64,000 nt of DNA from Candidatus Gastranaerophilales bacterium (GTDB taxonomy: Bacteria; Cyanobacteriota; Vampirovibrionia; Gastranaerophilales; Gastranaerophilaceae). Within the stretch, counting starts at the first letter, position 1. Every line of letters starts with the position of its first letter. Below, in pieces: positions 2,176-64,000 of this stretch. The stretch spans positions 44,789 to 108,788 of the forward strand of contig CANQNW010000006.1 of NCBI GenBank assembly GCA_947625305.1, read 5' to 3'. Position numbers and translations under genes: made by a program. The notes beneath the pieces are model-generated. The model was not told the DNA's origin. It ran no database searches and saw nothing but the letters and a program-made list of their open reading frames with translations.

Positions 2176-4482
2176 TTATTTTTCTTCCAATAAACTTTTA
2201 TTATCGTGGTAGCCGAGTAATTGAGCAACTTTTGCGATTGTTTCGGGGAAATATCTTACAAGCATTTGATTTCTGGTCTTAAATTTTTCTTCATTTATTC
2301 CTACAGAACATAAAAGCGAATTAGTTTCCGCAATAAATTCCGATAATCCTTCCGCATCTTCATGATAATATGCATAAGGTGAAAAATAGTGAATAAATGC
2401 CTGCTCATTATAGGGCATAATCTTTTCAAAGGCATTCATTTCTTTTAAATATATTTGTTTTAAATCTTCATCTTCTGTTGCTTTTTTATTGTACGAGAGA
2501 AAATGTCCGATTTCATGGTTAATTATTCCCGAATTTAATCCTGATGTTAATATTAATTCATTTCCGTCGGCACTTGAATCAAAGTTACTGCAATAGTTCC
2601 ATTTCTCAATATTATTTAGTAGTGCAATAAGAGTATCAGCTTGAAGTGTCTTTAATGTTTTCCAAAGAACTTCTTGCGCATAGCCTTTAATAATGTTGCT
2701 TACGGGAAATTCTTTTGTACTTTCTCCATCCGAAATTGTTATTATATGATTTTTATCATCATATTTAACAGTATATTCTATCCCGTTTATTGTATTTTTA
2801 ATTGTGTCTGCGGATGTTTTTTCATAACTTCTTTTTATATTAAGGATTTTTTCGCCTTTCTCGTTAGTTATTTCATAGGAGTAATCGCTTTTTATTATAT
2901 TAGAGTTTTCATCATTTAAAACATTGTAATGTCTTTCAATTAAATTTTTATACCTGTAAAATCTTTCATTGTATGAAATAGAGCCGTCAGGATTTTTTAC
3001 TGCTTTTGAAATTACAGTGCCTTGTGCGTTGGGCTTGAGAGAATTATCAAAATCGCAATTTATGCCGTCAGGGGAGGTGTCTTCTTTAAAGTCGCTTATA
3101 TCGTAATATTTTGAATCATAAAGACCTTCAATAACTTTTGAAGATGTTGTATGAATAACTCCTTTTATTCCCTTGGTCTTATCGTCTAAGATGAGATGTG
3201 TCATTTCAGCAATACCGTCAAATTTATTGTATTTAATACGGTAAATATCGTTGCCGTTCCTTTGGTATGATGTGCTGGAATTATCAATATCCTCCTGTGT
3301 CCTATTGTCGGATAAAATCCCGGTATTATCGAATATTTTAACGATATAAACAGTTTGTTTATCCTCCGTGTAAAATTGCTTGCCGATTACTGCAGCTGTT
3401 GTTCCTTTTACTTGAAGCGGGATTATTTCAATATCATAATTGTCTTTTAACAGTTCATTTATTTGCGGATTAATTTTAGATAACTCGTAAAAAGCTTGAA
3501 GTTCATCATCATCCAATAAAGATAGTGCATATGCTGAAGTCCTGCTGCAGCCTTGTTTTAGAAAATTTTTATATTGATTATTTGTTTTTTTGTTATTTTC
3601 TATATCTATAATGTGAGGTATATAACTTTCGTGCACTCCTTCTTTATACATATTGATTGCTTTTTCAAAATCTATGTCATCTAATACTACAAAATCCAAA
3701 ATTGTACTGTGACATATCCCCATTTTAATTAATTGAACGGCTTTTTCCTGCTGTTCTTCATCGAGAAGACATAAATCTGATGCATTATATACAGATAAGC
3801 CCATATCCAGAAACTTTTTAAAGTCTGATTTTTCTTTTTTATTTAGCGCAATAACAGTAAGTGCTGTTTCTATATCTATATCGTATTCCTGCATTAATTG
3901 CTCAAATTTATGCCGTTTAAAAATCGGTATTTCAAGAAAGGCCATTGCAACATCAGGTGAATAGCCTTTTTCTATAAGTTTTTTAGCTCTTCTTATCTGA
4001 CCGTCGCCCAGTGTTATGTAATCTGAAATATAATCTTTGCCTATCCCTTCTTCATTGAGTTTTAAAGCTTTCCCATATAAGTTCTTTTTGCTGTTTATAA
4101 TATGAATCAGCTTTTCATCATAAATGCCTATCTGCGCAAGGGCTAATGCCTTCTGATATTGTTCAGTTTTTAAATGAATTAATTGCGAAATTACATTATC
4201 AAAAACACCTTTTTTAGCCAGTTCACAAACTCTGTTATATTTGCTTATGCCTAAGTGCGCAAATTTTTTGGCTGATTTTTCGCAGACTCCGAGTTCTTGA
4301 AGTTCTTCAACTTTTGCATTATATAAGTTTATTTGATTTTGTCTTTTATAATATTTTTTACTTCCGAAAGATACGGAATTACTCGGTATAAAGCAATCGT
4401 TTTGTAATTGCTTATAATCTGATTTCACTGCTTTTTTATAAGTGTTTATTATTGGATTTATCGAAATTGATTGAACTCTCAT
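2176..4482 (-). CDS. Helical-repeat protein with C-terminal HExxH metallopeptidase-like domain
   Basis: This 768-residue protein has three parts. The N-terminus starts M-R-V-Q-S-I-S-I and carries a VSFG box at residues 37-40, a signature shared with several proteins in this window. Residues about 55-345 form degenerate helical repeats of roughly 36 residues with a recurring 'A..L...G' pattern (for example AKKGVFDNVISQL, ALAQIGIYDEKL, KLIEKGYSPDVAM). The C-terminal region has a zinc-peptidase motif HEIGH at 656-660 and a downstream EGLSEFIAET at 711-720, which could supply the third zinc ligand as in the anthrax lethal factor-like (M34/ATLF) families. There is no signal peptide or membrane segment. 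The middle region (about 350-640) is beta-rich and unrecognised. The peptidase role is inferred from the motif only. Confidence 0.72.
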   Translation of the reverse strand: MRVQSISINPIINTYKKAVKSDYKQLQNDCFIPSNSVSFGSKKYYKRQNQINLYNAKVEELQELGVCEKSAKKFAHLGISKYNRVCELAKKGVFDNVISQLIHLKTEQYQKALALAQIGIYDEKLIHIINSKKNLYGKALKLNEEGIGKDYISDYITLGDGQIRRAKKLIEKGYSPDVAMAFLEIPIFKRHKFEQLMQEYDIDIETALTVIALNKKEKSDFKKFLDMGLSVYNASDLCLLDEEQQEKAVQLIKMGICHSTILDFVVLDDIDFEKAINMYKEGVHESYIPHIIDIENNKKTNNQYKNFLKQGCSRTSAYALSLLDDDELQAFYELSKINPQINELLKDNYDIEIIPLQVKGTTAAVIGKQFYTEDKQTVYIVKIFDNTGILSDNRTQEDIDNSSTSYQRNGNDIYRIKYNKFDGIAEMTHLILDDKTKGIKGVIHTTSSKVIEGLYDSKYYDISDFKEDTSPDGINCDFDNSLKPNAQGTVISKAVKNPDGSISYNERFYRYKNLIERHYNVLNDENSNIIKSDYSYEITNEKGEKILNIKRSYEKTSADTIKNTINGIEYTVKYDDKNHIITISDGESTKEFPVSNIIKGYAQEVLWKTLKTLQADTLIALLNNIEKWNYCSNFDSSADGNELILTSGLNSGIINHEIGHFLSYNKKATEDEDLKQIYLKEMNAFEKIMPYNEQAFIHYFSPYAYYHEDAEGLSEFIAETNSLLCSVGINEEKFKTRNQMLVRYFPETIAKVAQLLGYHDNKSLLEEK

Positions 4483-4749
4483 ATTTCTTTTAAAACCCTA
4501 TATATAAAAATTTGCTATTTTAATGCAAAAAATGATTTTTAATTATTTCAAATATTTCTTTATGATATTATGGAAAGCAAAGCTATTAAAGGTTATTGGA
4601 TTAATAATGCGGGTCAAAATCCAAAAGAAAACAATATTGATTTAATCAAAAAATAAGTGTATTATCGTACTAATAAATATATTTTACCAATTTCATAATT
4701 TGTATAGACAAAAACAATTTTCTTTTAAGATTGTATAAAAGGAGTATGT

Positions 4750-5853: not shown

Positions 5854-6240
5854 TAATGGTAGTAATAGAGATATCATTTTTTTGCAAGTGTACCCTAAAA
5901 TAAATTTTAAGAAAATTTAATAATTTTTATTCGGCGAAAACTCTATAAATACACAAAAAAAATGTTTGCAAAGTTTGCAAACATCAAATAAACACGAGGA
6001 TATTAAGAGAGAGAGTAAAAAATTTTTTTCTAAATCAGTTGTGATTAAATTTCTGATTTTTTGGCTCTTAACATTGCCTCAGTTTTTTTGTTTTTGTATC
6101 CTTTCATATCGTCTACTCTTATATAAAGTATTTTTTTTTTAGAGAATTGCTTTTTTGTATTAATTTGCTTAACAAAAGTTAATAAAACTTGAAAAATATT
6201 ACTTGACATAAGCTTAAAGGAGTACGAAAATATCAAATGT
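5854..6240. other. 387-bp intergenic region upstream of the glutamate synthase operon
   Basis: This is the longest stretch without a convincing gene. It holds a perfect 10-bp inverted repeat (see 5963-5983), a purine run near 5998-6015, and a T-rich central part. A minus-strand frame of 63 codons at 6045-6236 is poly-T derived and lacks a ribosome binding site. The promoter and any nitrogen-responsive control of the downstream operon probably lie here. Confidence 0.6.
5963..5983. promoter_or_regulatory. Perfect 10-1-10 palindrome, candidate operator
   Basis: TGTTTGCAAA and its exact reverse complement TTTGCAAACA are separated by one G. The site is about 260 bp upstream of the glutaminase subunit start and about 110 bp after the U32 gene. 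Size and symmetry fit a dimeric repressor or activator site. There is no T-run after it, so it is unlikely to be a terminator. The regulator is unknown. Confidence 0.45.
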
Positions 6241-8963: not shown

Positions 8964-8978
8964 AAACGAAAGAGAAGT

Positions 8979-10055: not shown

Positions 10056-10056
10056 T

Positions 10057-10092: not shown

Positions 10093-10141
10093 CTGTATTC
10101 TGCCGATACTCAATTTGAGTAGTAATGTAAGGAGTGATTTC

Positions 10142-13580: not shown

Positions 13581-13587
13581 TTAATTA

Positions 13588-17192: not shown

Positions 17193-18409
17193 TATAGTAA
17201 GCTTTCAAGTTTTTTTACGGTATTATCATCAAAAGCTGTTTGTGCATTAACAGTGCCGTTTATTATGCTTTGTGATTTTTCTTTTAGTATATCATTAATT
17301 GATTCGTAATTTTTATTTACTGGGGTCGGTTTTGAATTTTTTATTGATGTTAAGAATATTTTTGAGTTATGTGGTTTTTCTTTTTGTTCTTTATAAATGT
17401 ACTTTTCAGCGCAGTGCCTGTCGGCGGGAATAATTAATCCGCTTTGAGTAAGTTTTTCTATAGATTTTTCGGAAGAAATGTATTTTATAAATTTTATTGC
17501 ATTTTCTTTATTTTTTGAATTTTTAGCTAATGCCCAGCCTGATGAATCAATATAAATTTTATTTTCTCCGCTTGAGGGGAATTCAATTATATCCCAATCA
17601 AAGTTGGCGGTTTCACGAAATTTAGGAACCATCCATCTTCCGCCTATATACATGGCAAGTTTATTATTTATGAACATTTGCGCTGTTGTCATACTGCCGA
17701 TTTGTGCTTTTGTCGGTGATATGTGATATTTATTTGAAAAATCAGCATACAGGTTAAGCGCTTCAATACTTTTTGGATTATTTATTATGATACTTTTTTC
17801 ATCATCAGATATTGCGCCTCCGCCGTTAGATGCTAAGAAATTAAGCCAAAATAATGAATCTTCTTCGGTATTTATTCCGTAAGATTTTTTTGTTGTAAGC
17901 TTTTGGGCGAGTTCTTTAATCTCATATATACTTGAAAGATGAATTTTAGGGTTAATGCCTTCCTTCTTAAATAAATCTTTATTAATAAATATAACTAAAT
18001 TAGAAATATCTCTTGGGATTGCATATAATTTTCCGTCATCTTCAAAACACTTTAATGCTTCTTTATAATATGATTTTTCATTGTCTTTAAAGTATGGTGT
18101 TAAATCTTCAAGCAAATTAGCTTTAATATACATTTTTATAAAATGATTGTTTAAAAAAATTACATCGGGCTCCAGATTTGAAGCAAATAATAAGTGTATT
18201 TTTTGAAAATAATTTTGAGGTATATGAATAAAATCAACTTTTATGTTTGTTTCATTTTCAAAATCGTTGATAATTTCTTTGATAATTTTGGTTTCACTTT
18301 GAGAACCCCACGATGAAAATTTAACAGAATTATTTTCGGTATTGTCAAATCTGCTGATAATACCGATAAGAACCACCAAAACCCCAAGTAGTATAATAAT
18401 TTTTTTCAT
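17192..18409 (-). CDS. Extracellular solute-binding protein, family 1 (sugar type)
   Basis: This 405-residue protein has an N-terminal hydrophobic segment (residues about 3-20) and then the family 1 pattern: FSSWGSQSETKIIKEII, ASNLEPDVIFLNN, a lobe-crossing DGKLYAIPRD, MYIGGRWMVP, and SSGWALAKNSKNKENAIKFI. Such proteins bind oligosaccharides or glycerol-phosphate derivatives for an ABC importer. There is no cysteine lipobox after the hydrophobic segment, so it may stay anchored by an uncleaved signal. No ABC permease or ATPase gene is nearby. The neighbours are a purine permease (1-nt overlap) and a membrane protein (2-nt gap). Ligand unknown. Confidence 0.8.
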   Translation of the reverse strand: MKKIIILLGVLVVLIGIISRFDNTENNSVKFSSWGSQSETKIIKEIINDFENETNIKVDFIHIPQNYFQKIHLLFASNLEPDVIFLNNHFIKMYIKANLLEDLTPYFKDNEKSYYKEALKCFEDDGKLYAIPRDISNLVIFINKDLFKKEGINPKIHLSSIYEIKELAQKLTTKKSYGINTEEDSLFWLNFLASNGGGAISDDEKSIIINNPKSIEALNLYADFSNKYHISPTKAQIGSMTTAQMFINNKLAMYIGGRWMVPKFRETANFDWDIIEFPSSGENKIYIDSSGWALAKNSKNKENAIKFIKYISSEKSIEKLTQSGLIIPADRHCAEKYIYKEQKEKPHNSKIFLTSIKNSKPTPVNKNYESINDILKEKSQSIINGTVNAQTAFDDNTVKKLESLL

Positions 18410-18411
18410 TA

Positions 18412-19578
18412 CTATATTTTAGCCAGTTCCTTCATTGAAGAATCTGAAATTTCTATCATTGCTTTATAATCATCAAGGCGGACTATGTAAATTTCATTTT
18501 TTCCGCTGTTATCATAATACCTTGCCTGCAGATTAATCTGCGATAAATCTTTAAATGTTTCAAGCGGAAAAATATTTTTATTAACAAAACCGAATAATTT
18601 AAAAGAATTATCTTCGGAAATCAAATAGAAACCTTTATTTGGAGTTAGTTTTAAAATTGAAAGAATATCGGATTTATCTGATTCTTTTTCTTCTTTTATT
18701 TCGTGAGGAGGCGGTAATACATCGTCAACCAGAGGCATGGATAATTCCGATTCCTCAATATGTTCTGTTTTGGTTATCGGATTTGTATGTTTTAGTTTTA
18801 CTACATTAGATGTATCATTTAATAAATTTGAGGTTTGATTTAAACTGCTTTTTATTTCGTATGATTTATTATTTAATTTGGCAATTGATTCAATATTAAA
18901 ACAGCCGAAACTGTTTTTTTCTGATTCTGATAACGAATTTTTTATGATATTTCTCGGAATAATTGCTCTTTTATAGTTTTTTGTATCTTGTGGAGCAGAC
19001 GGGATTTTATATGCGGAATCAAAATTGACTGGGAACGATGTGTAACTGTTTGTTTCTGTATTATTAAAGAAACCTTTTAACAAACGGAATAACATAAAGC
19101 AAATGCCTGCTAATATAAGCAGTACTATAAAAGTATAAATACTGATATTTTTTAATGCGATTATAAAAGGATGATAATCAGAATTTAGACCTGATGTAAG
19201 TTTAATCTTGTAGTTATCATTCATAAATACATCTAATTTAATGTATTTAGATTCAACATTATTTTTTATAATCGGTTTTGTCGCAATATTAAATTGAATA
19301 TTTCTTTTATCCGATAAATGAACATAATTAATTTTTACTTTTTTAGAATAAGTGGAATCAGGCAGAAATATATAGTATCCGTTATTCCCGTTTTTTTGCA
19401 GAAAAGCTTTACCTGCGTAATTGTTATCAAATAAAAAATTTACATTATATTCATTGTTATTAATCGGCTCAATAATAAGTCGTTTTAAGTAATTTATATC
19501 ATTTGCCGATACGGTTAATGAAGATAAAATAAATATAAAGGTAAATGTAAATAATTTAAAAAAAATATTCTTTTTCAT
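18412..19578 (-). CDS. Exported beta-rich protein with one internal membrane segment, unknown
   Basis: The preferred start is the ATG at 19578, which gives 388 residues and a good signal peptide (MKKNIFFKLFTFTFIFIL, cleavage near VSA). The frame is open to an ATG at 19701, but that adds an implausible second hydrophobic stretch. The first mature domain (about 110 residues, LIIEPINNNEYNVNFLF ... RNIQFNIATKP) resembles the beta pattern of AMIN domains of cell-wall proteins, but this is weak. A membrane segment (FIVLLILAGICFMLFRLL) follows, then a low-complexity linker and a terminal folded domain. Cotranscription with the solute-binding protein and permease is likely (2-nt gap). Confidence 0.6.
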   Translation of the reverse strand: MKKNIFFKLFTFTFIFILSSLTVSANDINYLKRLIIEPINNNEYNVNFLFDNNYAGKAFLQKNGNNGYYIFLPDSTYSKKVKINYVHLSDKRNIQFNIATKPIIKNNVESKYIKLDVFMNDNYKIKLTSGLNSDYHPFIIALKNISIYTFIVLLILAGICFMLFRLLKGFFNNTETNSYTSFPVNFDSAYKIPSAPQDTKNYKRAIIPRNIIKNSLSESEKNSFGCFNIESIAKLNNKSYEIKSSLNQTSNLLNDTSNVVKLKHTNPITKTEHIEESELSMPLVDDVLPPPHEIKEEKESDKSDILSILKLTPNKGFYLISEDNSFKLFGFVNKNIFPLETFKDLSQINLQARYYDNSGKNEIYIVRLDDYKAMIEISDSSMKELAKI

Positions 19579-19734
19579 GCTTAATTTTAATTCCCCAGGG
19601 TAATATATAGTTAATACAAAAATTACAATAATATTAAAACACCAAAAAATATTTTTTGCCAATAAATTAACGAAGTTTTTTATTGAAAAAATAAGTAACA
19701 TTTGATATTATCTAACTATAGAGCGGTGTAAATA

Positions 19735-20643
19735 ATGAATATATCAGAAGAACAAGTAAATAAAATTTTTGAGCTTGCCTCAATGGATTATAAAAAACAT
19801 CAGGAAAATGTTACGGAAAAAGATATTTCTGAAGCATTAATTGAAATAGAACAAAAAATATATTCCTTTGCAAATAGCGGTGTAAAGATTGATTCGCTTG
19901 AAAATAAGCGAATATTAATTGCTGATGATTTAGAGTTATCAATCTACCAATTAAGTACAGTATTAAAACGAATAGGAATAACTCCTAAAGTTGCAAGGCA
20001 TAAGGATGAAGCGTTAAAAGAAATGCAAAAAGCGCATTTTGATTGTGTAATCTTTGATTTATTTATGCCCGACAGCTCTGACGGATTTGATTTGATTAAG
20101 GCCGCAGTTGATAAAAGGACTGAAGATAATCTTGATTTTAAAATTATCGTTATTTCCGGAACGGATGATTCAAATTTAATCGAACACAGCTATGAATTAG
20201 GTGCGGATTTTTATATTCAAAAAGACGGAAACTGGCATTCTAAGTTATTAAAGTATATCAGTTCTTCATTCCAAATTGATAAAAATACTGCATTTACAAG
20301 ATATACCATAAATAATGATATTGCATCATTTATTATAAAAAGATTTAATGAAACAAAAGTTTTTGATGAACTTTTAAAGAATATAAATACTTCAATATAT
20401 ACGGGTATTAAGCATGTATTGTTTGATTTAAAAGAAATAACAGCTTTTGATGCGGATAATGTCTATATTTTTGCTGATATTTATAAAATATGTGCGGAAA
20501 ACGGCGGAAAATTTGTTCTCGTTAACCCTTCATTAAAGGTAAGAGAGGCTCTTTCATTTGCTTATCTTGAGGATGTTATTCCTTATAAAAATTCTGTAGA
20601 AGATGCTGTAACTCTTATAATGAGCGAATCTAAGGCTCAATAA
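19735..20643 (+). CDS. Response regulator: receiver domain plus STAS-like output domain
   Basis: The protein has 302 residues. Residues 1-56 are a helical N-terminal region. A receiver domain spans about 58-175 with acidic pair Asp64/Asp65, phospho-acceptor Asp108 (IFDLFMPD), Ser141-Gly-Thr143 and Lys163. The C-terminal 100 residues (HVLFDLKEITAFDADNVYIF ... GGKFVLVNPS) read as a STAS-like fold as in anti-sigma-factor antagonists. Output by partner switching rather than DNA binding is therefore likely. GAGCGGTG precedes the ATG. It is divergent from the exported-protein operon and its 3' end overlaps convergent rpiB by 14 nt. No kinase is adjacent. Confidence 0.75.
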   Translation: MNISEEQVNKIFELASMDYKKHQENVTEKDISEALIEIEQKIYSFANSGVKIDSLENKRILIADDLELSIYQLSTVLKRIGITPKVARHKDEALKEMQKAHFDCVIFDLFMPDSSDGFDLIKAAVDKRTEDNLDFKIIVISGTDDSNLIEHSYELGADFYIQKDGNWHSKLLKYISSSFQIDKNTAFTRYTINNDIASFIIKRFNETKVFDELLKNINTSIYTGIKHVLFDLKEITAFDADNVYIFADIYKICAENGGKFVLVNPSLKVREALSFAYLEDVIPYKNSVEDAVTLIMSESKAQ

Positions 20644-26495: not shown

Positions 26496-26984
26496 ATGCC
26501 GGATGAAAAATTATTAGTAGAAATGTATACAGACGGAGCTTGCAGCGGAAATCCGGGCAGAGGCGGTTATGGTTGTATCTTAAGATATAAAGATACAAGC
26601 GGTAATTACCATGAAAAAGATTTAACTCAAGGCTATGACAGTACAACAAATAACAGAATGGAATTAATGGCTGTTATTGTTGGTCTTGAGGCTTTAAAAA
26701 AACCTTGCAGAGTTGATATTTATTCCGACAGCAAATATTTTATCGATGCCTTTGAGCAAAAGTGGATTGATAACTGGCAGAAAAATAATTGGAAAACCGC
26801 AGGTAAAAAACCGGTTAAAAATGTTGATTTATGGCAAAGACTTTTAATTGCAATGAAACCTCATACCGTTAATTTAATCTGGGTAAAAGGTCATAACGGG
26901 CATGAATTTAATGAAAGGTGCGACAGATTAGCGGTTAATTCTTCAAAATCCGATAATTTAATTGAGGATGTTATTAACAATTGA
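26496..26984 (+). CDS. rnhA: Ribonuclease HI
   Basis: This 162-residue RNase HI degrades RNA in RNA-DNA hybrids. The catalytic carboxylates are all present: Asp in [16 protein letters not shown], Glu in TNNRMELMA, Asp in [10 protein letters not shown] and Asp in ERCDRLAV. The handle region [16 protein letters not shown] is typical of the E. coli-type enzyme. The start has no Shine-Dalgarno and follows a strong promoter by 6 nt. The 3' end overlaps the convergent gene by 11 nt. Confidence 0.95.
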
Positions 26985-27555
26985 TTTCAAGCTGATATTT
27001 TTCTTTAGCTGAATCTACGGTATTTTTCATCGTCTTTTTAGGAAGTTCCCATATACCTGATTTTCTTTTAATAAATTTCATTCTTGTTAAAGCGCCTTGC
27101 AGCCTGTCTGTAAAAGCTGTTCTTATTTTATCGGAACTATTGGAACTGTTGTTGTTTTGCGTATCATTTGCCAAATAAGCAAGAAGTACATCTGCTCCGT
27201 TTATATATTTTTTATTTTCTTCAAGTTCATCAATCAACAGATATTTAAAAACATTTTTATTTTCTCTGCTTAAATGTACGGAGGTTTGAGCGCAGGATAT
27301 TACTTCACCCGTTGTGCCGTTTGTAACTATGTAAAATTTATAATCGGGAATGCTCCCGCCTTTAATAAATTCATTATACATATCAGGGTAAATTGATTTT
27401 CCTGCGGTTTTACTGTATTCCACATCTTTTAAATCCTGAGGGTCTTTTGAATCTAATTCCCATATGATTGCATTTGTTTTATTTTTATCTTCCGCTTTAA
27501 TTACATTACAGTATCCGATTTGTTTTTTCCCGAAACTTATGCTTTGAACACTCAT
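26974..27555 (-). CDS. Unknown protein with MxVQSISFG N-terminal signature
   Basis: This 193-residue protein begins M-S-V-Q-S-I-S-F-G, where the two parts of the N-terminal signature found in several unrelated proteins here are fused in nine residues. The body is mixed alpha/beta and may be a single domain ([46 protein letters not shown]). A Ser/Asn-rich break follows near residue 135 and then a basic helical tail. No signal peptide or membrane segment. Function unknown. AAAGGAAAGA lies just before the ATG. Confidence 0.65.
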
Positions 27556-29524: not shown

Positions 29525-30175
29525 ATGAGAATAAATAATGTAAACAGAGTTTCATTTAAAGCATATGTTCCCGTTCAATATTTTTTAAAGGACGAAAAAA
29601 TTGGTGAAAATCAATACAGATATATAAAGGCAGAAGATGAAGCAACTGTTAAAAAATGTCAAAGAATGCTTGTTTCAAGTTTAAATGCACCTGCGAGTAA
29701 AAATTCAAATCCCTCGTTTGTAGATAAATATAAAAGTGTAGATAATGATTACAGAAAAATGCCTCTTGTGAGGTCATATTATGATTATTACAGCCCTAAA
29801 ACAAAAAAACTTATAAAACCTGATTTAGCAAAAGATAATGCCGAAAAAAATTCAATAGTTCGTCCTGCACTTGTTACGGGAGAAGATGCAAATGAAATTG
29901 ATATAATGGCAAAACCTATCGGAATGGCTAAAGCTGAATCATTAGACAGATACGGCAGGACAGATACATATAAGGTAAGATTAGAAAATCGTACATTTTT
30001 TGATAAACAAAGAAATTATATTCTCCATCCCGAAAAAAGGATACAAACCGAGGACGGCAGAAATATGTTTTTAAGAGTTTATTTTAATCCTATATATTAT
30101 ACAAAAGGCGCAAGAAAAGGCGAATTAAAAAGTGTGGAATATGTTAATTCCCGCTGGCTTGCAGAAAAATATTAA
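29525..30175 (+). CDS. Unknown basic protein with MxINxV...VSFK signature
   Basis: The protein has 216 residues. It begins M-R-I-N-N-V-N-R-V-S-F-K-A-Y, again the shared N-terminal signature. The rest is Lys/Arg/Tyr-rich and largely beta or coil, with segments such as KMPLVRSYYDYYSPKTKKL, IVRPALVTGEDANEIDIMA and GRTDTYKVRLENRTFFD. There is no signal peptide, membrane segment or catalytic motif I can name. It converges with the GH13 gene (4-nt overlap of the stop codons). Confidence 0.65.
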   Translation: MRINNVNRVSFKAYVPVQYFLKDEKIGENQYRYIKAEDEATVKKCQRMLVSSLNAPASKNSNPSFVDKYKSVDNDYRKMPLVRSYYDYYSPKTKKLIKPDLAKDNAEKNSIVRPALVTGEDANEIDIMAKPIGMAKAESLDRYGRTDTYKVRLENRTFFDKQRNYILHPEKRIQTEDGRNMFLRVYFNPIYYTKGARKGELKSVEYVNSRWLAEKY

Positions 30176-32529
30176 CCTACCTTTTTAAATATTAATGTTG
30201 AATAAGCTGCCATTTTAATAGGATTTTTATTTTCTCCGTCGCTTATGATAATTTGATTATTTTTAAATGCGCCTGAGCCGTCATAGTGAGTGCTGTCGGT
30301 ATTTAATATTTCCTGCCATTTGCCTTTCGGAAAATTGATGAAATAACTTGAAGCATCAAGTCTTGGGTATTCGGCATCCATAAAGTTGGTTATTGCAAAT
30401 ATTTCATTATCTGCATTTTTTGCTTTCATATGTGTTCCTATAACTTTTGAAACAGGATGTTTTACGGTGTTTTCTTTTACAATATACCCGTCAGAGAGTG
30501 CAGGATTTTCTTCATTTATTCTGTTTAAATCTTTTGTTAAATTTTTAAATTTGCTGATATTATCTTTGCCTTCGGGAGAATATTTTAAAGTTCCGAGTTT
30601 GGATTCAATAAATCCTTTAAGCCCTGTATCGTATCCTTTTTCAACATACAGATAGTGTTCATCCGGTACGGATTGAAATTCTCTGAAAAATCTGAACGGG
30701 GTTAAATCTGCCTTTTCATCGCCTTGAAATACCATTTTTTGCCCCGGAGTTGCAAAAGTTCTTGCAAGTACCATTTTATATTTATCATATGCTTTTTTGT
30801 AGATTTGATTTAATGCTTCAACAGTAATCCCTGAATCTTTTCTAATTCCTAATGGGGTTAAAACATCGTTTTCAAAAGACTTTTGAATTGCTCGTTTTTT
30901 CTGTGAAGAAATACCGTTTATATTCGTTTTATACCCGTCAAGATATCCTGTTTGCAGGAAGATTGCAAGTCTTTCTGAAGCCAGCTGGGCTTTTTGGGAT
31001 TTAACAATGTATACAGCTTCTTCTTCTGATATTTGTTTTGCTTTGCTTAAGTCTTTAGCTCTTTGTATATCTCTATAGTTAAGCTGAATATTTTCATTTA
31101 AGTTCAGCATTGGGACAAGTAATTTTGAAATAAGTCTTGAACCTTCAAAATTACCTATTTCATCGTGGCTCATAACATATTTTACTCTTGAACTTCCGCT
31201 ATATAGTGCATTTTCAAGATTATCTAAATCTACATTCCCATACAGACATTCATTTAAAGTGTGATAGAAATAAAAATCCCATTCACTGTTAAAACCTAAT
31301 TTATCGAGTGATACATTATTATTTTCAATATTTTCTATTGCTTTGCAGTGTTTTTGTTCGCTATTGCCTTCTTCGGATTCAAATTGTTCAATAGGTGCGG
31401 TAACTCTGTAATCATTACCTCTGCCATCTTCTGCTATTAAAAAGGCTTCTGGTTTATGGTAATTAATTTCCGCCGCAATCTGTTTCATAGTATAGTCTGA
31501 TTCCATATATTTGGTCATATCAAGTCTTAAACCGTCGCAATGATAATTGTCAATCCAGTTAAGCGCTGCATTAACCATATAATCACGAACATACTTTGAA
31601 TTTTGTCCTTCAAAATTAAAAGCCTCGCCAAAGTCATTACTTCCTTTTATGTATGGTCCGGTTTTTAATAATGAAGCCCCATCAGGCCCTAAGTGGTTAG
31701 GAACCATATCCATTATTACATTTAAACCAATTTTATGTGCATAATCTATTAATGATTTTAATTCATCAGGCCCGCCTAAATGCTCGGAGGGTGCAAATTT
31801 GTCTACTCCGTCATACCCCCAGTTGAAAGAATAGGTATTTTCAACAGGCATGATTTCTATTGCATTAAATCCCATATCTTTTACGGAATTAAGCATTGAT
31901 TTTGCGCTTTTAAATGTTCCTTTTTGTGTAAATGTTGCAGGGTTGAATTCGTATATTCTTGCGCCGTTTAAAGGTGTTAATCCGTTTTCATTATTTGCTT
32001 TACGGGAAATTCTGTTTTTATTGTTTTTAAACCAATCACTATCTGTCCAATTAAATAAAGAATGGTCATATATAACAGACTCCTCCAATAATTGTTCCTG
32101 TCTGAAGGAATACGGGTCTTTAACTTTGTCTATATCGCCGTTTCCTTTATAAATAGTATAAAAATATTTGTCGCCGTTTTGAATTTCACCTGATGGAATT
32201 TTTTTTGCTGTTTCAAAAATCCCGTTTCCTTTATTTTGTAATTCGTATGTTTTTTCTTGTTTCTTATTTTTTTTCTTAACGGTTACTGTTACCCTTTTAG
32301 TATCGGGATATGTGAAAATTTTAAATGATGCTTCTTTTGTTTTAGGGTCTATAACAGCACCCCAGCTTTTATGTTCAGCAAGTGTCCTTCCGAAGGATAT
32401 AGGTTTATAGCAAATATTTGATATTTCGTTTATTTGCTTTTCCGATTCTTTATTTTGATTGTTTTGTTTTAATGTACCATTTGTTTTTGAAGGAATTTGA
32501 ACTGATTTATTTACTGAATTTACTATCAC
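30172..32529 (-). CDS. GH13 alpha-amylase-family enzyme (branching enzyme/TreZ-like) with tagged N-terminus
   Basis: The protein has 785 residues from a GTG at 32529, supported by TTGGAG 8 nt upstream and by the resulting M-I-V-N-S-V start, which matches other tagged proteins here; the frame is open to 32610 without such support. An ISFG box is at 44-47. A CBM48-like module (about 50-145) precedes a GH13 barrel with DMVPNH (274-279), GLRLDMTKYM (nucleophile Asp337), LIAEDG (acid/base Glu367) and MSHDEIGN (His455, Asp456). The GYDGVDKFAPSEHLGGPDELK block resembles branching enzymes and maltooligosyl-trehalose trehalohydrolases. It acts on alpha-glucans; which reaction is uncertain. A helical insertion occurs at about 470-560. 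Confidence 0.85.
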   Translation of the reverse strand: MIVNSVNKSVQIPSKTNGTLKQNNQNKESEKQINEISNICYKPISFGRTLAEHKSWGAVIDPKTKEASFKIFTYPDTKRVTVTVKKKNKKQEKTYELQNKGNGIFETAKKIPSGEIQNGDKYFYTIYKGNGDIDKVKDPYSFRQEQLLEESVIYDHSLFNWTDSDWFKNNKNRISRKANNENGLTPLNGARIYEFNPATFTQKGTFKSAKSMLNSVKDMGFNAIEIMPVENTYSFNWGYDGVDKFAPSEHLGGPDELKSLIDYAHKIGLNVIMDMVPNHLGPDGASLLKTGPYIKGSNDFGEAFNFEGQNSKYVRDYMVNAALNWIDNYHCDGLRLDMTKYMESDYTMKQIAAEINYHKPEAFLIAEDGRGNDYRVTAPIEQFESEEGNSEQKHCKAIENIENNNVSLDKLGFNSEWDFYFYHTLNECLYGNVDLDNLENALYSGSSRVKYVMSHDEIGNFEGSRLISKLLVPMLNLNENIQLNYRDIQRAKDLSKAKQISEEEAVYIVKSQKAQLASERLAIFLQTGYLDGYKTNINGISSQKKRAIQKSFENDVLTPLGIRKDSGITVEALNQIYKKAYDKYKMVLARTFATPGQKMVFQGDEKADLTPFRFFREFQSVPDEHYLYVEKGYDTGLKGFIESKLGTLKYSPEGKDNISKFKNLTKDLNRINEENPALSDGYIVKENTVKHPVSKVIGTHMKAKNADNEIFAITNFMDAEYPRLDASSYFINFPKGKWQEILNTDSTHYDGSGAFKNNQIIISDGENKNPIKMAAYSTLIFKKVG

Positions 32530-32684: not shown

Positions 32685-32951
32685 CTATGCTACATAGTTC
32701 ATTCCCGAAGGGTTTCCCGTTGCTACATCTTCCATTAAATCGTACTTAAGATTAATTGCAGCCTTATTAACACGATATTCAAAATCGGTAATTTCGCCAT
32801 TTTTGTGTTTTTCTTCTAATTTTTCAAGTTCTTTCGCTCTTTTTAATTCTGTTTTAACAATTAGTTTTGTATTGTCTTTACTTTGAGGTCGAGGTGCAAA
32901 ATTATTTGCTCCAACTAATCCTCCTTCTGGTTTGAATGATACCGGTGCCAT
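32685..32951 (-). CDS. Small charged protein with VSFKPEG N-terminus
   Basis: The protein has 88 residues starting M-A-P-V-S-F-K-P-E-G, that is, only the second half of the shared signature. A Gly/Asn/Pro stretch follows to residue about 28, then one long charged helix (ELKRAKELEKLEEKHKNGE) and a short C-terminal tail. AAAGGAGG lies 9 nt before the ATG, one of the best ribosome binding sites in the window, and a strong terminator follows, so it is probably well expressed as a single gene. No function known. Confidence 0.72.
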   Translation of the reverse strand: MAPVSFKPEGGLVGANNFAPRPQSKDNTKLIVKTELKRAKELEKLEEKHKNGEITDFEYRVNKAAINLKYDLMEDVATGNPSGMNYVA

Positions 32952-41641: not shown

Positions 41642-42697
41642 TTAAATCGATTGCTCTGCACCAAGCACTTCCAGAACTCCATATACATTTTCGTAACCGT
41701 ATTGTGAAACAAGTTCATCTAATGAGACTTTACCTTCAGCAATTTTGTTTGCTATTATTTTTGCAGTTCCTTTTAGTTTTGTAGCAGCCGCCATTATATT
41801 TTCTTTTGTGATTGAAGATTTAACTTTTGTAAATAAATTCTTTGTAGAGTTTGCAAGAGTTTCAGCTGTAGCTTTCGGATCTTTTGCCGCATTTTTAATT
41901 GTTTCAGAAACCTTTGCTGCTCCTTCTTTAGCTGTTTCTGCTACTGCTTTTGCTGTACTTTCAGGATTTTTTGCTGCATCTTTTAATGCTTGTGCCGCAT
42001 TTGAATCTTTAAGTGCTGCCTTTGCATTCGCTAATCCTTGTGTAGCTGCTGTTTTAACTGCTGCCGCATTATTTACCGTTGATGATTTCATATCAATGGC
42101 AAGGGCTTTTCCTTTCGCCAACAGACTTGCATCTTTTCCTAATGAGGCTGTTGCTCCGGCTGTACTTGTTTTCATAACTGCGCTGTAACTTGCTTTAGCA
42201 CCGGCTACAGATAAGCCTGTTACCAATGCTCCGCCTCCTACATCCTGCCATGCCAGTTTTGCTTCTGCATCAGTTGTAGCTTGAGATGCATTGTATATGC
42301 CCTTTCCGATTTGTACAGCGCCCGTAACTGCTCCAATTCCGCATGCTACCAGCCCCACTGCAGGGAATGCTACACATAGAGCCGCTGTGCCTAATGTCAG
42401 TAATGTCTTACCCAGAGAGAATTTTCCTTCTTTATTTGTAAAGCATCCTTTTACCATGTTAACGGCCGTTTTGCCGACACCTTTTAAGGTATTGCCTAAT
42501 GCACTCCAAAATCCGATTTTACCGTCATCTTTTCCGTCTGTACAGGTTTCGCCGCTTTTTGATATGTATTGATCGTTCATATATGCTGTATTGTATTGGG
42601 CATATTCTTTTTGTACTTCTTTGCTCGTATCGTTATTAGCATTAAAATTTTTGTTCCATTGACTATAATCAATGGAAGTAATGTTTCCAACGGTCAT
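41642..42697 (-). CDS. Ala-rich protein with glycine-zipper region and helical tail, unknown
   Basis: The protein has 351 residues. It begins M-T-V-G-N-I-T-S, a weaker form of the shared N-terminal signature, and has NFNANN near residue 18 (compare KFNANS in the protein at 61671). Residues about 65-160 are hydrophobic and glycine-rich (LGKTLLTLGTAALCVAFPAV, GIGAVTGAVQIGKG). Residues about 200-310 are Ala/Lys/Thr helical repeats (LEA- or apolipoprotein-like; KDAAKNPESTAKAVAETAKE). AAAGGAGG lies 10 nt before the ATG. There is no signal peptide. Insertion in or association with a membrane is plausible. Function unknown. Confidence 0.68.
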   Translation of the reverse strand: MTVGNITSIDYSQWNKNFNANNDTSKEVQKEYAQYNTAYMNDQYISKSGETCTDGKDDGKIGFWSALGNTLKGVGKTAVNMVKGCFTNKEGKFSLGKTLLTLGTAALCVAFPAVGLVACGIGAVTGAVQIGKGIYNASQATTDAEAKLAWQDVGGGALVTGLSVAGAKASYSAVMKTSTAGATASLGKDASLLAKGKALAIDMKSSTVNNAAAVKTAATQGLANAKAALKDSNAAQALKDAAKNPESTAKAVAETAKEGAAKVSETIKNAAKDPKATAETLANSTKNLFTKVKSSITKENIMAAATKLKGTAKIIANKIAEGKVSLDELVSQYGYENVYGVLEVLGAEQSI

Positions 42698-55029: not shown

Positions 55030-55030
55030 A

Positions 55031-56367: not shown

Positions 56368-56373
56368 GCGGTA

Positions 56374-58056: not shown

Positions 58057-58095
58057 AAATTTTTTTATTATATAATTTCAATATGTGAGGTATAT

Positions 58096-59520: not shown

Positions 59521-59542
59521 TGCGACACTAGATTATATAATA

Positions 59543-59767: not shown

Positions 59768-59912
59768 AATTTAAAATATTAATACAAAAATTAAAAAAAA
59801 ATATTGTTAAAATATGTAAATAATTTATTTTATTATTTTAAGTATAAGCAACTTTTTATTTTCTCGGAATTTATTTTCGTTGTAATATTTTAATGTAGTA
59901 AGGAGTATTTTA

Positions 59913-61484
59913 ATGAAAGTTTCAAATGTTCAAAGTTTTCAAAGCTTTAACGGAATAAAAGATAAATTTAAAACACATAAATTAAACAAAAAACCTCAAA
60001 TCGATTTTGATAAACATGAATACTATAATAAATATGTAGAAGAAGATATAAGAACCGGCACAATAGCATCTGCGGCTGCAGCTGCTGTTTTACTTGCAGG
60101 TGTGCTGGGGTCAGGAATTGCTCTTCATTCGGCAAGAAAACCTGTTAATCCTCCGGAAGTTTCAAAAATCCCTTCAGATGTAGCAGATAGTTCTTATGCA
60201 GATATGCCTTCACAGCAAGAATCTGATATGTTCTATGTTGATAATAAATTTGATGTAAAAAATAAAACAAATCCTACAGATAAATATGAATCTGAAGCTA
60301 AATCTGATTCTGACGATGAAGTAGTTGTCGAGCCTGCTTTAGAAGAAGGAAAAGCGCCAGAGCAAGAAGCAAAAGTAGAACAAGAAGTTTCTCAAAAATC
60401 AAAAAAAGCTAAAGAAACTGAAGATGTTGAATACATTGAAGAATCTGAAGTCATAGATGAACCGGAGGATGTAGAATATATTTACGAACCTGAAAATTCA
60501 AATCCGTTTGTAAATAATAATTTTATTAATCCTGAGATTAGTTTAGCTCCTCAATTCCCGCCTCCCTATGTTTGGAATCCGGAAATTTCCGATGGAAATG
60601 AAATTAATGAATCAAAAATGGAATTCAAAAGTCCATTTGACGGTAAAACTGTAAAAGAAACAGGCCGTGATGAAGTTGCGGGTTCCGTATTATTTGATGA
60701 CGGTTCAATTTTGGTTGAAAAATCAGGAATATTATATTCCGCAAATGGCATGTATGTAGATTTTAATGAATATATGGAGGAAGGCGAAGGCATGCCTGTT
60801 CCTATACATGTATCCAAATATAATACAGATTCATTTGTTTTTGATGATATTAAAATTGGTGATGAAACTTTTTATCCTATAGGAATGACAGAAGACGGAA
60901 ATGTTAAATTTAACGATGGGTCAATAGTAGATGTAAATACAGGATTAGTAATAAGAACAAACGGTTCTGTTTACCATTATATTACCGGTGATATGTTAAC
61001 AGGGCCCGTTAATGACAGCGAAATAGTAGTAGATAATGAAAAACCAAGATATCCTTATCCTGCATTTCCTACGTTTTATGATCCAATAACCGGTGAAGCA
61101 CATAAAGAAGTTGAAAGAACAAAAACTTCAATTATTTATGATGACGGTTCCGTATTTGATATTGCGACAGGGAAAACAACAAGACCTGACGGCTCTATCT
61201 GGGGCTATGGTCCTGTCTTATTGCAAGTTCCTGAAGACCCGAGCGGTCTAGCACCATACAAAGATGAAGAAAATAATGTTCATTATGCAATAGCATGTGA
61301 TGTTGAAAATAATACGGCTACATTTGATGATGAGTCAAAATTCTTTGTTGAAAACGGACTTTTAATAAAAGCTGATGGTTCAATGTGGTCTTGGAACGGT
61401 TGTACAACAACATTACCCGAAAGATTGCCGCAGGTTGAACCTGTTCCAGGAGATCCTCTTCCTCCTCCGAAAACAGAACCTTAA
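59913..61484 (+). CDS. Membrane-anchored surface-type protein with four DDGS repeats
   Basis: The protein has 523 residues. It starts M-K-V-S-N-V-Q-S-F-Q-S-F-N-G, the shared N-terminal signature, and has a cytoplasmic part to residue 49. One membrane helix (50-72, IASAAAAAVLLAGVLGSGIA) follows, then an acidic Pro/Glu/Lys spacer to about residue 200. Four copies of a beta repeat follow, each with D-D/E-[GE]-S then N-G/D-G-S (VLFDDGSIL, VKFNDGSIV, IIYDDGSVF, ATFDDESKFF), spaced about 65-80 residues. The C-terminus is Pro-rich. AAGGAG precedes the ATG and a terminator follows. It is architecturally parallel to the next gene. Function unknown; a cell-surface role is inferred. Confidence 0.72.
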   Translation: MKVSNVQSFQSFNGIKDKFKTHKLNKKPQIDFDKHEYYNKYVEEDIRTGTIASAAAAAVLLAGVLGSGIALHSARKPVNPPEVSKIPSDVADSSYADMPSQQESDMFYVDNKFDVKNKTNPTDKYESEAKSDSDDEVVVEPALEEGKAPEQEAKVEQEVSQKSKKAKETEDVEYIEESEVIDEPEDVEYIYEPENSNPFVNNNFINPEISLAPQFPPPYVWNPEISDGNEINESKMEFKSPFDGKTVKETGRDEVAGSVLFDDGSILVEKSGILYSANGMYVDFNEYMEEGEGMPVPIHVSKYNTDSFVFDDIKIGDETFYPIGMTEDGNVKFNDGSIVDVNTGLVIRTNGSVYHYITGDMLTGPVNDSEIVVDNEKPRYPYPAFPTFYDPITGEAHKEVERTKTSIIYDDGSVFDIATGKTTRPDGSIWGYGPVLLQVPEDPSGLAPYKDEENNVHYAIACDVENNTATFDDESKFFVENGLLIKADGSMWSWNGCTTTLPERLPQVEPVPGDPLPPPKTEP

Positions 61485-61502
61485 TATTATAAAATTTTTA
61501 TG

Positions 61503-61536
61503 AGCGGTCTTTTAAGTTTAAAAGACCGCTTTATAT
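61503..61536 (+). terminator. Terminator after the DDGS-repeat gene
   Basis: AGCGGTCTTTTAA pairs with TTAAAAGACCGCT (61503-61515 and 61518-61530), followed by TTATAT. Confidence 0.75.
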
Positions 61537-61670
61537 ATTGTTTTTAACAAAGTTCAGTTGTTTTGTAAATAAATGTAAATTTAATTGTAAATTTTGTTAG
61601 AATTTCGCAAAAAATAACTTTCAGGGTACTTTCGTTTGTATGATAATTTTTATAAGTAAGGAGTTAAAGC

Positions 61671-64000
61671 ATGCAAATTAATAAAATAGACACAAATCCA
61701 TTAGAATATAAGCATTCTTTTGAAAGAAATAAAAAATCTAAATTTAATGCAAACAGTTATGAGGAGGATTATTTACAAAATCCGATACAATCAAAATATA
61801 GTAATTCTGCAAATGTATTAAAAGGTTTGGCACTTGCAGGAATTTTAGGTACAACAGCAGTATCTGCAGCAAGCTGCGGAGTTCAAGAATCTGCTCGCAA
61901 TAATCAAATGCCCGAAACTCAAACTACTATGCCTGAAACAGTACAAACTCCTGAAGTTACTAATGATATTGAAACTGCCCAAGATGAGCTTGATAAAATA
62001 GCAGCTGAAATAGATACAATGGAAACTCTTTCAGGTAAAACAGAACTGGCAAATGTGCATTCTGCGGCAATGCCCGTAACAGAATTTTATTTTACAAATG
62101 CTGATGGTGAGGCAGTTCTTACTCCTGATAAAAATATTAAAACAAATGAGGCAGGTTCTGTAATTGTTACTATTACGGAAACTCCTTCAGATGATGACAC
62201 CGAAGGAAATACTTTAAGTGAAATAATTGAAAAAGTTTATGCTGATTCTTTAGCAGGTTATGAAGGCGAAGAAAGAATTACAGTAAAAAATAAAATTATA
62301 GATGAAATCATTCAATCAAATCCATCGTTATCAGAATATGTAAAAGCGGAACTCGGAGAAGATGCAAAAAGTTATGCCGTAATCGGAAATCTTGATTTAT
62401 ATAGCGGAGTATCAAGCAGTGATGAAACCTTAGATTCAAGAATGTTAATCATGCCTGAAACTGTTGTATATCAAGTTCAAGGTAAAGAACCTGAAAAGAC
62501 AGTATTTTTTAGTTCTTCAGATATATATAGACCTAATACGGAATCAGCAAGTGTTGTTAATGCTGAAGATTCTGAATTATTAGAGGATGAATATAAATCA
62601 TTTTCCGATATGATATATGGCGCATATGGCAAGGATATAACTGATGAAGCATATAGAGATATTGTGTATGCAGTAGTTAATGCTCCTCAAAATGCTGATG
62701 AATTTGAAAATATTATTGATAATATGAATTTCTATGAAATTCTTGAAACTGCAAATATAAATGATTTAAATCGTACTTTAGATGAAAATATGGATGATGT
62801 AATGCTTGGTTTATATCTTCCGACTGTAAGTACATTAAGAATTCAAGCTAATAATGCTGATATAAATACAAAAGTAACGGATGGAACTGTTTATCAGTTA
62901 TCACCCGGATATACAACTTTTGGTTTAAATGACAGAGCTATTACTCTTACTGATAATACAAATCCTGACGGAACGATGGCGCCCGGTTCGGTATATAAAT
63001 TGGAGGATGTTCTTCAATATTACTCTTCACCTGACGGTAACGGCAGATTTGCTAATGTGGTAGACGGTAAATTAGTAAGAAATGATAATGTTAATTATGG
63101 TGAGCAGTTTGCTCAAAGTATATTACAACAGGTTGTATATGCAAACTTAGATATATTTGCATCAAGATATGAAGATCAAAATGGTATTTATTACTATGGT
63201 ATTTTTGATGTAGATCCCGAATTTGATACAACCGGAAAATCATTAGAAGAAATTTTAAGTCATTCTAAAATAGATGTTGACAGAATGATGGGATACAGCT
63301 TTGTTGATAAAAACGGAGAATTAAGATTTAATGACGGAGTTGAATTAAAACTTCCTCAATTTAATTACAGAATAAATGATTGTGATACATTAAAGGCATG
63401 CGGCTGCAGTGATGATGATCAGTGTAATTGTAAACCATCCGTTCCTGCATGTTCTTGTCCTGAAGATGAAAATCCTAAAGACCCCGGATGTAATTGTCCT
63501 GATAAAGATGTAGAAATTGTTCCGGATGAACCGGAACCAACAGTTCCTGAAGAAGTGGAAATTGTTGATGATGAACCAACAGTTCCAACACAACCAACAC
63601 ATCCAACTCATCCAACTCAACCGACACATCCAACTCAACCGACACATCCGACACAACCAACTCATCCAACACAACCAACTCATCCAACACAACCGACACA
63701 TCCGACACAACCGACGGATACACATCCTACATTCCCGACAGAACCAACAGACACGCAACCAACGGATCCTACAGACACGCAACCAACAGATCCGACAGAC
63801 ACACAGCCTACAGATCCGACAGACACGCAGCCTACAGATCCGACAGACACGCAGCCTACAGATCCGACAGACACACAGCCTACAGATCCGACGGATACAC
63901 AGCCTACAGATCCGACAGACACGCAGCCTACAGATCCGACAGACACACAGCCTACAGATCCGACAGACACACAGCCTACAGATCCGACAGACACACAGCC
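61671..64000 (+). CDS. Large membrane-anchored Pro/Thr-repeat surface protein, 3' end cut by the window
   Basis: The open frame begins at ATG 61671, 7 nt after AAGGAG, and is still open at the window end (over 775 residues). It starts M-Q-I-N-K-I-D-T-N-P and has KFNANS (24-29), then a membrane segment (49-67, VLKGLALAGILGTTAVSA) ending at Cys69, which might be a lipobox-like site but with a long N-terminal part. A folded region spans about 120-570. A Cys-rich stretch (CGCSDDDQCNCKPSVPACSC) and an acidic segment follow, then 18-bp repeats giving PTHPTQ, then 24-bp repeats giving DPTDTQPT. The neighbour upstream has the same layout. The repeat tail is probably a stalk or spacer at the surface. 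Confidence 0.75.
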   Translation, partial: MQINKIDTNPLEYKHSFERNKKSKFNANSYEEDYLQNPIQSKYSNSANVLKGLALAGILGTTAVSAASCGVQESARNNQMPETQTTMPETVQTPEVTNDIETAQDELDKIAAEIDTMETLSGKTELANVHSAAMPVTEFYFTNADGEAVLTPDKNIKTNEAGSVIVTITETPSDDDTEGNTLSEIIEKVYADSLAGYEGEERITVKNKIIDEIIQSNPSLSEYVKAELGEDAKSYAVIGNLDLYSGVSSSDETLDSRMLIMPETVVYQVQGKEPEKTVFFSSSDIYRPNTESASVVNAEDSELLEDEYKSFSDMIYGAYGKDITDEAYRDIVYAVVNAPQNADEFENIIDNMNFYEILETANINDLNRTLDENMDDVMLGLYLPTVSTLRIQANNADINTKVTDGTVYQLSPGYTTFGLNDRAITLTDNTNPDGTMAPGSVYKLEDVLQYYSSPDGNGRFANVVDGKLVRNDNVNYGEQFAQSILQQVVYANLDIFASRYEDQNGIYYYGIFDVDPEFDTTGKSLEEILSHSKIDVDRMMGYSFVDKNGELRFNDGVELKLPQFNYRINDCDTLKACGCSDDDQCNCKPSVPACSCPEDENPKDPGCNCPDKDVEIVPDEPEPTVPEEVEIVDDEPTVPTQPTHPTHPTQPTHPTQPTHPTQPTHPTQPTHPTQPTHPTQPTDTHPTFPTEPTDTQPTDPTDTQPTDPTDTQPTDPTDTQPTDPTDTQPTDPTDTQPTDPTDTQPTDPTDTQPTDPTDTQPTDPTDTQPTDPTDTQ
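63585..63716 (+). repeat. 18-bp tandem repeat encoding Pro-Thr-His/Gln
   Basis: Seven to eight imperfect copies of an 18-bp unit that encode PTHPTQ with synonymous third-base changes, so the protein repeat is kept while the DNA drifts. Confidence 0.8.
63765..64000 (+). repeat. 24-bp tandem repeat encoding DPTDTQPT, open at the window end
   Basis: About ten copies of GATCCGACAGACACRCAG plus six more bases; several adjacent copies are identical, which is prone to slippage in steps of eight codons. The array continues beyond 64000. Confidence 0.88.

What the first reader, a model, noticed from the sequence alone, without database searches (positions are those of the whole stretch)
4363..61760. 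A shared N-terminal tag on otherwise unrelated proteins
Seen directly: six proteins start M-x-[IV]-[NQS]-x-[IV]: MRVQSI (4482, minus), MSVQSI (27555, minus), MRINNV (29525), MIVNSV (32529, minus, GTG start), MKVSNV (59913), MQINKI (61671). A seventh, MTVGNI (42697, minus), is close. Five have an [IV]SF[GK] or QSFNG box within residues 6-47: VSFG, ISFG, VSFK, ISFG, SFNG; the 88-residue protein at 32951 has only the box (PVSFKPEG). The bodies are unrelated: HExxH peptidase-like, GH13 enzyme, repeat surface proteins, small unknowns. Conservation limited to the N-terminus is what a sorting, processing or complex-recruitment signal looks like. I know of no described signal with this form; that it is novel is inference.
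Basis: partly seen in the sequence, partly recalled or inferred. Interest (0 to 1): 0.85.

Follow-up and report, generated by a model that had tools for sequence, protein, structure and literature searches.

The report
Order-wide N-terminal tag on unrelated proteins
Gut bacteria of the order Gastranaerophilales carry the same short tag at the front of many otherwise unrelated proteins, and the tag likely works as an address label, possibly read by a flagellum-type export machine that has lost its flagellum.

Summary
In detail: all quoted N-termini are present, five of the seven with an [IV]SF[GK] or SFNG box. In a 904-kb sample of the window's genome plus samples of nine related genomes, the box is concentrated at N-termini (outside the window 40/1368 versus 63/5802 internal windows, P=2e-6) and goes with the M-x-[IV] start (P=2e-6). 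Three genomes of the same family show no excess (2/198); other orders show none (2/294). Bodies vary: GH13, HExxH, sigma70, PRPP synthetase, ankyrin, mostly unknown. The tag outlasts its body: ISFGK in 6/6 homologues, two with bodies 33-34% identical; SFK in 9/9, bodies down to 27%. Codons vary; the linker is acid-poor and rich in Asn, Gln, Pro and Ser.

Function is inferred. The order carries a strongly conserved second flagellum-type export system (no L-ring in the window's genus, flagellin in only 2 of 23 genomes) and a soluble FlhA-C-like protein. I propose an N-terminal docking/export signal for that machine (confidence 0.3). Against: some bodies look cytosolic, the box is not the canonical gate-recognition motif (23/48, P=0.11) although 18/18 of the system's own subunits have one, and no outer-membrane ring was found. 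Cytosolic docking without export is about as likely.

The parts
4363..4482 (-). Tag of the 768-aa HExxH protein (gene 2176-4482): MRVQSI start, linker, VSFG box at residues 37-40
   Evidence: homologues at 33-34% identity keep M-R-V-x-x-I but vary the box
27529..27555 (-). Tag of the 193-aa protein (gene 26974-27555): MSVQSISFG, start and box fused
   Evidence: ISFGK kept in 6 of 6 sequences, two of them with bodies 33-34% identical
29525..29560 (+). Tag of the 216-aa protein (gene 29525-30175): MRINNVNRVSFK
   Evidence: SFK kept in 9 of 9 orthologues while the residues before it vary in number
32389..32529 (-). Tag of the GH13 protein (gene 30172-32529, GTG start): MIVNSV start, 37-residue linker, ISFG box at residues 44-47
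   Evidence: 22-sequence alignment: M1, F46, G47, R48 invariant, linker not conserved; model residues 1-45 have pLDDT below 50
32931..32951 (-). Box-only N-terminus MAPVSFK of the 88-aa protein (gene 32685-32951)
59913..59954 (+). Tag of the 523-aa protein (gene 59913-61484): MKVSNVQSFQSFNG, followed after residue 45 by a hydrophobic stretch
61671..61688 (+). Start half MQINKI of the repeat protein that runs off the window; no [IV]SF[GK] box, so only a possible member

Best explanation
The window's shared N-terminus is a real modular tag found across the order (M-x-[IV]-x-x-[IV] start, acid-poor linker rich in Asn, Gln, Pro and Ser, [IV]-S-F-[GK] box) that likely serves as a docking signal read by a FlhA-type receptor and would route its carriers to a filament-less flagellum-type III export machine. 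Shown: the tag, its N-terminal bias, its conservation beyond that of the body in two families, its absence from my samples of other orders, and the presence in nearly all order genomes examined of a second FlhA/FlhB/FliP set plus a protein resembling the cytoplasmic domain of FlhA without its membrane part. Inferred and untested: that this FlhA-C-like protein or the gate binds the tag, that tagged proteins leave the cytoplasm, and where they go.
For: N-terminal excess and co-occurrence of the two halves. Tag conserved beyond the body: ISFGK 6/6 with two bodies at 33-34%; SFK 9/9 with seven of eight bodies at 27-37%. Codons vary. Composition of the first 25 residues: acidic 0.39x, Leu 0.58x, Ser 1.5x, Pro 1.6x, polar-hydrophobic-polar triplets 3.2x of 1377 untagged proteins; linker only (16 long tags): acidic 0.35x, Pro 2.6x, Asn 2.2x, Gln 2.1x. 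Type III effector N-termini are described as rich in Ser, Thr and Pro and poor in Leu, Glu, Asp and Ala, with polar-hydrophobic-polar as a discriminating pattern (PMC2669295, passages). Early flagellar subunits carry a two-part N-terminal signal (PMC8983047, passages). FHIPEP in 38/38 order genomes, with a second full-length form in 36/38 and the FlhA-C-like protein in 38/38; FlhB and FliP in 37/38 each. FlhA-II is 73-79% identical between families f1, f6 and f7, as conserved as flagellar FlhA (71%). The FlhA-C-like protein was seen in all 28 f1 genomes and in none of the f9, f10, f12, f14, f15 genomes there at full length. A tagged gene (L048:6383-6616) lies next to it, and two tagged genes (L202:10700, 14981) lie near the second export operon.
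Against: Some tagged bodies look cytosolic: sigma70, a PRPP synthetase paralogue, a radical SAM enzyme. The box is not the canonical gate-recognition motif: FxxxPhi in 23/48 tags versus 38% background (P=0.11), and +4 hydrophobic in 46% of N-terminal versus 40% of internal boxes, while all 18 subunits of the second system in three genomes have it at residues 40-60 (control 468/1676). Thr and Ala do not follow the type III pattern. FlhA-II also occurs in f9, f14 and f15, where samples showed no tag. No L-ring gene in 23/23 genus genomes and a single secretin each, so no exit through the outer membrane is known. Two tagged proteins have a lipobox-like or hydrophobic stretch after the tag and could use Sec. 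Five of seven FliK N-termini read lack the box. Three f1 genomes show no excess of the box although they belong to the same family.
Confidence: 0.3

Rival explanations
1. The tag is a cytosolic short linear docking motif: a receptor in the cytoplasm (the FlhA-C-like protein, a chaperone or a membrane hub) gathers tagged proteins, without any export.
For: Cytosolic-type bodies (sigma70, PRPP synthetase, radical SAM); proteins with a hydrophobic stretch after the tag would keep the tag inside the cell; the FlhA-C-like protein has no membrane part in the window's genome.
Against: No receptor identified; composition resembles type III signals.
Confidence: 0.3
2. There is no single function: short disordered N-terminal extensions, biased composition and the first strand of some domains produce similar-looking starts, and the families with a conserved box keep it for their own folds.
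For: Shuffles already give about half of the observed matches (20.5 of 39); the box is loose; three f1 genomes show no excess (2/198); in the 216-aa family the box runs into a conserved domain start.
Against: Two halves co-occur (P=2e-6), internal positions and other orders show no excess, and the box recurs in unrelated families while linkers vary.
Confidence: 0.2
3. The tag is an N-terminal degron read by an ATP-dependent protease or its adaptor and sets the lifetime of accessory proteins.
For: N-terminal ClpX motifs that begin Met-basic-hydrophobic are recalled, not from a call; tagged copies examined are accessory paralogues or orphans.
Against: Not tested; a conserved F-G/K box is no part of the recalled ClpX motifs; no adaptor was sought.
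Confidence: 0.1

Closest known systems
Two-part export signal of early flagellar subunits (N-terminal hydrophobic residues plus gate-recognition motif; Bryant et al. 2022, PMC8983047, passages read)
   Same: N-terminal, hydrophobic residues right after Met, a second Phe-containing element downstream, disordered spacer, uncleaved as far as known
   Different: Box at residues 4-46 (6 of 48 at residue 30 or later) instead of about 36-40 or further; Gly/Lys after the Phe; FxxxPhi not enriched; bodies are enzymes and orphans, not rod or hook subunits
N-terminal signals of type III effectors (Arnold et al. 2009, PMC2669295, passages read)
   Same: Modular N-terminus on unrelated bodies; rich in Ser and Pro, poor in Leu and acidic residues, polar-hydrophobic-polar pattern
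   Different: A recognisable shared box here; Thr not raised, Ala not clearly lowered; no injectisome secretin, needle or translocator identified
Partial flagellar gene sets of Gastranaerophilales, read as flagellum loss (Soo et al. 2014, PMC4040986, passages read)
   Same: Same order, same persistence of a subset of flagellar genes
   Different: Here the retained set includes a second, distinct export system, 73-79% identical in FlhA between flagellum-less and flagellated families, that also sits beside the true flagellar export genes
Extended or lipoprotein Sec signal peptides
   Same: N-terminal; two tagged proteins have a hydrophobic lipobox-like stretch after the tag
   Different: The other box-bearing window proteins have no hydrophobic core in residues 1-60

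Membership tests
Early flagellar two-part export signal | Small hydrophobic residues at the extreme N-terminus | tested here: met
   Position 3 is I or V in 28 of 46, position 6 hydrophobic in 54% of 37 hand-collected tags; outside the window M-x-[IV] in 20/40 versus 221/1328
Early flagellar two-part export signal | Gate-recognition motif FxxxPhi (form of the motif recalled) | tested here: not met
   23/48 versus 1499/3928 background, P=0.11; the system's own subunits 18/18 versus 468/1676
Early flagellar two-part export signal | At least about 26-30 residues between the two elements | tested here: not met
   Phe at residue 30 or later in 6 of 48; requirement from PMC8983047 passages
Type III effector N-terminal signal | Composition: Ser, Thr, Pro up; Leu, Glu, Asp, Ala down | tested here: inconclusive
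   Ser, Pro up and Leu, acidic down (P 5e-15 to 0.016), Thr and Ala not significant; hand-collected tags, so partly selected
Type III effector N-terminal signal | System-dependent secretion | not testable with these tools
   needs an experiment
Type III export system (second set in this order) | Export gate FlhA, FlhB, FliP (with FliQ, FliR) and ATPase | tested here: met
   (families); FliI, FliH; FliQ/FliR read by eye beside FliP. Scores of FlhA, FlhB, FliF, FliI lie below NCBIfam equivalog cut-offs for both flagellar and injectisome types
Functional flagellum | Flagellin and L-ring in the window's genus | tested here: not met
   Flagellin family in 2 of 23 genus genomes, not in the window's; FlgH in 0 of 23
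Sec signal peptide | Hydrophobic core within the first 30 or so residues | tested here: not met
   Best 15-residue hydropathy in residues 1-60 of the six box-bearing window proteins: 0.27, 0.30, 0.27, 0.34, 0.53, 1.38
ClpX N-terminal degron | Protease-dependent turnover | not tested
   motif recalled only

The most novel reading that the evidence does not exclude
Gastranaerophilales run a filament-less flagellar machine as a general protein exporter: a soluble FlhA-C-like receptor reads the M-x-[IV]...[IV]SF[GK] tag and feeds some tens of tagged enzymes and orphans per genome into a second FlhA/FlhB/FliPQR gate, a new protein-sorting code in gut bacteria.
Probability: 0.2. Interest if true: 0.88.

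Novelty: new variant of a known kind. Interest (0 to 1): 0.6.

Why it matters
If right, it gives a handle on which proteins a common, mostly uncultured gut order sends where; it turns flagellar genes that were read as relics into a working exporter; and it offers a two-component system (tag and FlhA-C-like protein) that simple binding assays can test. Even if the mechanism is wrong, an N-terminal tag that is more conserved than the bodies behind it, in unrelated families of one order, needs an explanation.

Tried and rejected
DNA- or mRNA-level element: rejected; tag codons vary and upstream DNA is not visibly shared (24 of 27 genes shown, 3 not returned by the second gene caller). Sec signal: rejected by hydropathy. 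Tag equals gate-recognition motif: tested and not supported. FliK as a tagged bona fide substrate: box only in the sister genomes G033 and G028, absent from the five other full FliK N-termini read, so treated as chance; other FliK loci were not read. Unbiased EM motif discovery collapsed onto low-complexity patterns; an iterative PSSM over-fitted (training fold 4-164, test fold 1.8-3.1); neither is used as support. The first, simple gene caller gave spurious ORFs and was replaced. Two of the 48 hand-collected tags (L080:13750, L105:10678) come from the first caller only; for L105 the second caller chose a start that would cut into the Pfam domain. The f11 comparison (genomes with and without an FlhA-C-like piece) was too small and the f11 protein has a membrane segment. 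The model of the FlhA-C-like protein has pTM 0.42 and was not used. Literature for a described tag or a second type III system in this order: listings, with passages of PMC3787301, PMC5877343, PMC4040986, PMC4451040: nothing seen; most subscription papers are not in that library.

Full report
What was checked. The window lies in a 1.97-Mb, 26-contig genome. I take it for Gastranaerophilales because close relatives of its FlhA-C-like protein that carry a name are so called (Candidatus Avigastranaerophilus, Candidatus Gastranaerophilales; most of the 120 listed have no name). All N-termini and boxes of the finding are present. MTVGNI (42697) shares features with another family and MQINKI (61671) lacks the box.

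Statistics. The whole genome was not available as a file, so I sampled 42 stretches of 20 kb plus the window (904 kb), stretches of nine related genomes (G033, G027, G032, G024, G023, G025, G014, G059, G090) and of nine genomes of other orders of the class (G045, G039, G055, G132, G068, G071, G042, G048, G060). Genes were called with a dicodon model. With the expression [VIL][STN]F[GK] or [STN]F[KRN]G in residues 2-55 of proteins without an early hydrophobic stretch: window 6/48; rest of its genome 15/621 versus 27/2685 internal windows (P=0.007); f2-f7 23/549 versus 21/2223 (P=1e-6); G014, G059 and G090 2/198 versus 15/894 (no excess); all order outside the window 40/1368 versus 63/5802 (P=2e-6); other orders 2/294 versus 11/1351 (no excess); order versus other orders P=0.013. 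At the internal rate about 15 of the 40 would be chance. A shuffle control over the first sample gave 39 observed against 20.5, SD 4.4. The M-x-[IV] start goes with the box outside the window (20/40 versus 221/1328, P=2e-6).

Shape. In 48 hand-collected tags position 3 is I or V in 28 of 46, position 6 hydrophobic in 54% of 37, position 7 Asn in 15 of 35; the box is V or I in 38 of 48, Ser in 30, Phe, Gly in 23 or Lys in 17, then Gly in 17 or Ser in 8. The collection was made by eye and leans towards the motif. Linker-only composition of the 16 long ones: Asp/Glu 0.35x, Pro 2.6x, Asn 2.2x, Gln 2.1x, Ser 1.4x, Thr 1.1x.

Selection. In the 193-aa family (26974-27555) ISFGK is kept in six of six sequences although two bodies are only 33-34% identical; residues 1-10 of those two are 80% identical. 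In the 216-aa family (29525-30175) SFK is kept in nine of nine; seven of eight bodies are 27-37% identical to the window's and one 95%; the residues before the box vary in number. In 22 GH13 sequences M1, F46, G47 and R48 are invariant and the linker is not conserved; in the model residues 1-45 have pLDDT below 50. The genome's other GH13 of this type (L047:370-2478) and three relatives of it (L022-L024) start without the tag. HExxH homologues keep M-R-V-x-x-I at 33-34% identity but vary the box.

Bodies. Of 20 tagged proteins scanned, 7 have a Pfam match over the curated cut-off: GH13, two NUMOD-type, PRPP synthetase, sigma70, ankyrin, radical SAM. Of two more near the export operon, one is GH13-like. 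The tagged PRPP synthetase (L081) is 42-47% identical to an ordinary one that lacks the tag in 30 of 30 loci read; whether its own genome also has an ordinary copy was not tested. The tagged sigma factor is specific to G032, with a 39% relative there and others at most 34%.

Machine. FHIPEP (FlhA/SctV) was found in 38 of 38 order genomes, in three forms: flagellar (867-891 bits, 13 genomes, none of the 23 of the window's genus), a second full-length form (685-718 bits, 36 genomes counting one fragment; not seen in G026 and G036, 78% and 82% complete), and a protein of about 490 aa that matches only the cytoplasmic domain (38 genomes). In the window's genome the second form sits with FliI, FliH, FliF, FliE, two FlgF/G-like genes and a lytic transglycosylase; FlgB and FlgC there are my reading. 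FliP and FlhB lie elsewhere, with FliQ- and FliR-like neighbours read by eye. FlhA-II is 73-79% identical across three families and 37-38% to flagellar FlhA. Flagellin is absent from 21 of 23 genomes of the genus, FlgH from 23 of 23; each has one secretin. In the class sample 24 of 24 f8 and 2 of 2 f13 genomes have no FHIPEP; f9, f14 and f15 have the two full-length forms in most genomes but not the 490-aa protein, apart from a weak 297-aa partial match in G068 (f9); f11 has FlhA-C-like pieces, one of them with a membrane segment. The 490-aa protein matches solved FlhA cytoplasmic domains (3mix, E 4.7e-36).

Mechanism. Place, modularity, composition and two-part form resemble type III signals (PMC2669295, PMC8983047, passages), and a conserved machine and a receptor candidate exist in the same order. 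But the box fails the gate-recognition test (23/48, P=0.11) that the system's own subunits pass 18 of 18 against 468/1676 other proteins; the spacing rule fails; several bodies look cytosolic; and no outer-membrane exit was found. I give the export reading 0.3, equal to cytosolic docking without export.

Known or new. The literature seen describes partial flagellar gene sets in the order, read as loss of function (PMC4040986, passages), and flagella in some members (PMC3787301, PMC5877343, passages). No such tag or second type III system turned up in the searches. The FxxxPhi form of the gate-recognition motif and the ClpX motifs are recalled, not taken from a call.

Noticed in passing
window 41642-42697 (-); L052:2760-3962, L086:15996-17090, L033:14004-15134: A second family with a shared N-terminal module: a CTDGKDDGKI[SG]F loop (EF-hand-like by eye) followed by a hydrophobic, Gly/Ala-rich stretch.
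   Followed up: no
L035:15212-19450, L202:450-5490, L053:13326-15590, L054:9699-10784: A complete-looking, strongly conserved flagellum-type export system in a genus with flagellin in only 2 of 23 genomes and no L-ring gene; literature read such sets as flagellum loss.
   Followed up: partly
L048:6621-8084; L205:8538-10019: A protein of about 490 aa resembling the FlhA cytoplasmic domain behind a small N-terminal domain, present in 38 of 38 order genomes.
   Followed up: partly
L033:15232-17532 and 17595-18989: Two neighbouring tagged proteins with NUMOD / I-HmuI-like DNA-binding repeats (six stretches in one) and no nuclease domain match.
   Followed up: no
window 63400-64000 (+): His-Pro-Thr-Gln then Thr-Asp-Pro-Gln-type tandem repeats in the protein that runs off the window's end.
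   Followed up: no
L081:19033-19362 and 19480-19818: Tandem small paralogues that start MNINR[VI]NQ[AT]PSFGN.
   Followed up: no
L092:7175-8191 and G032:C37:577-1512: A lineage-specific, tagged sigma70-like protein and a 39% identical relative in the same genome.
   Followed up: partly
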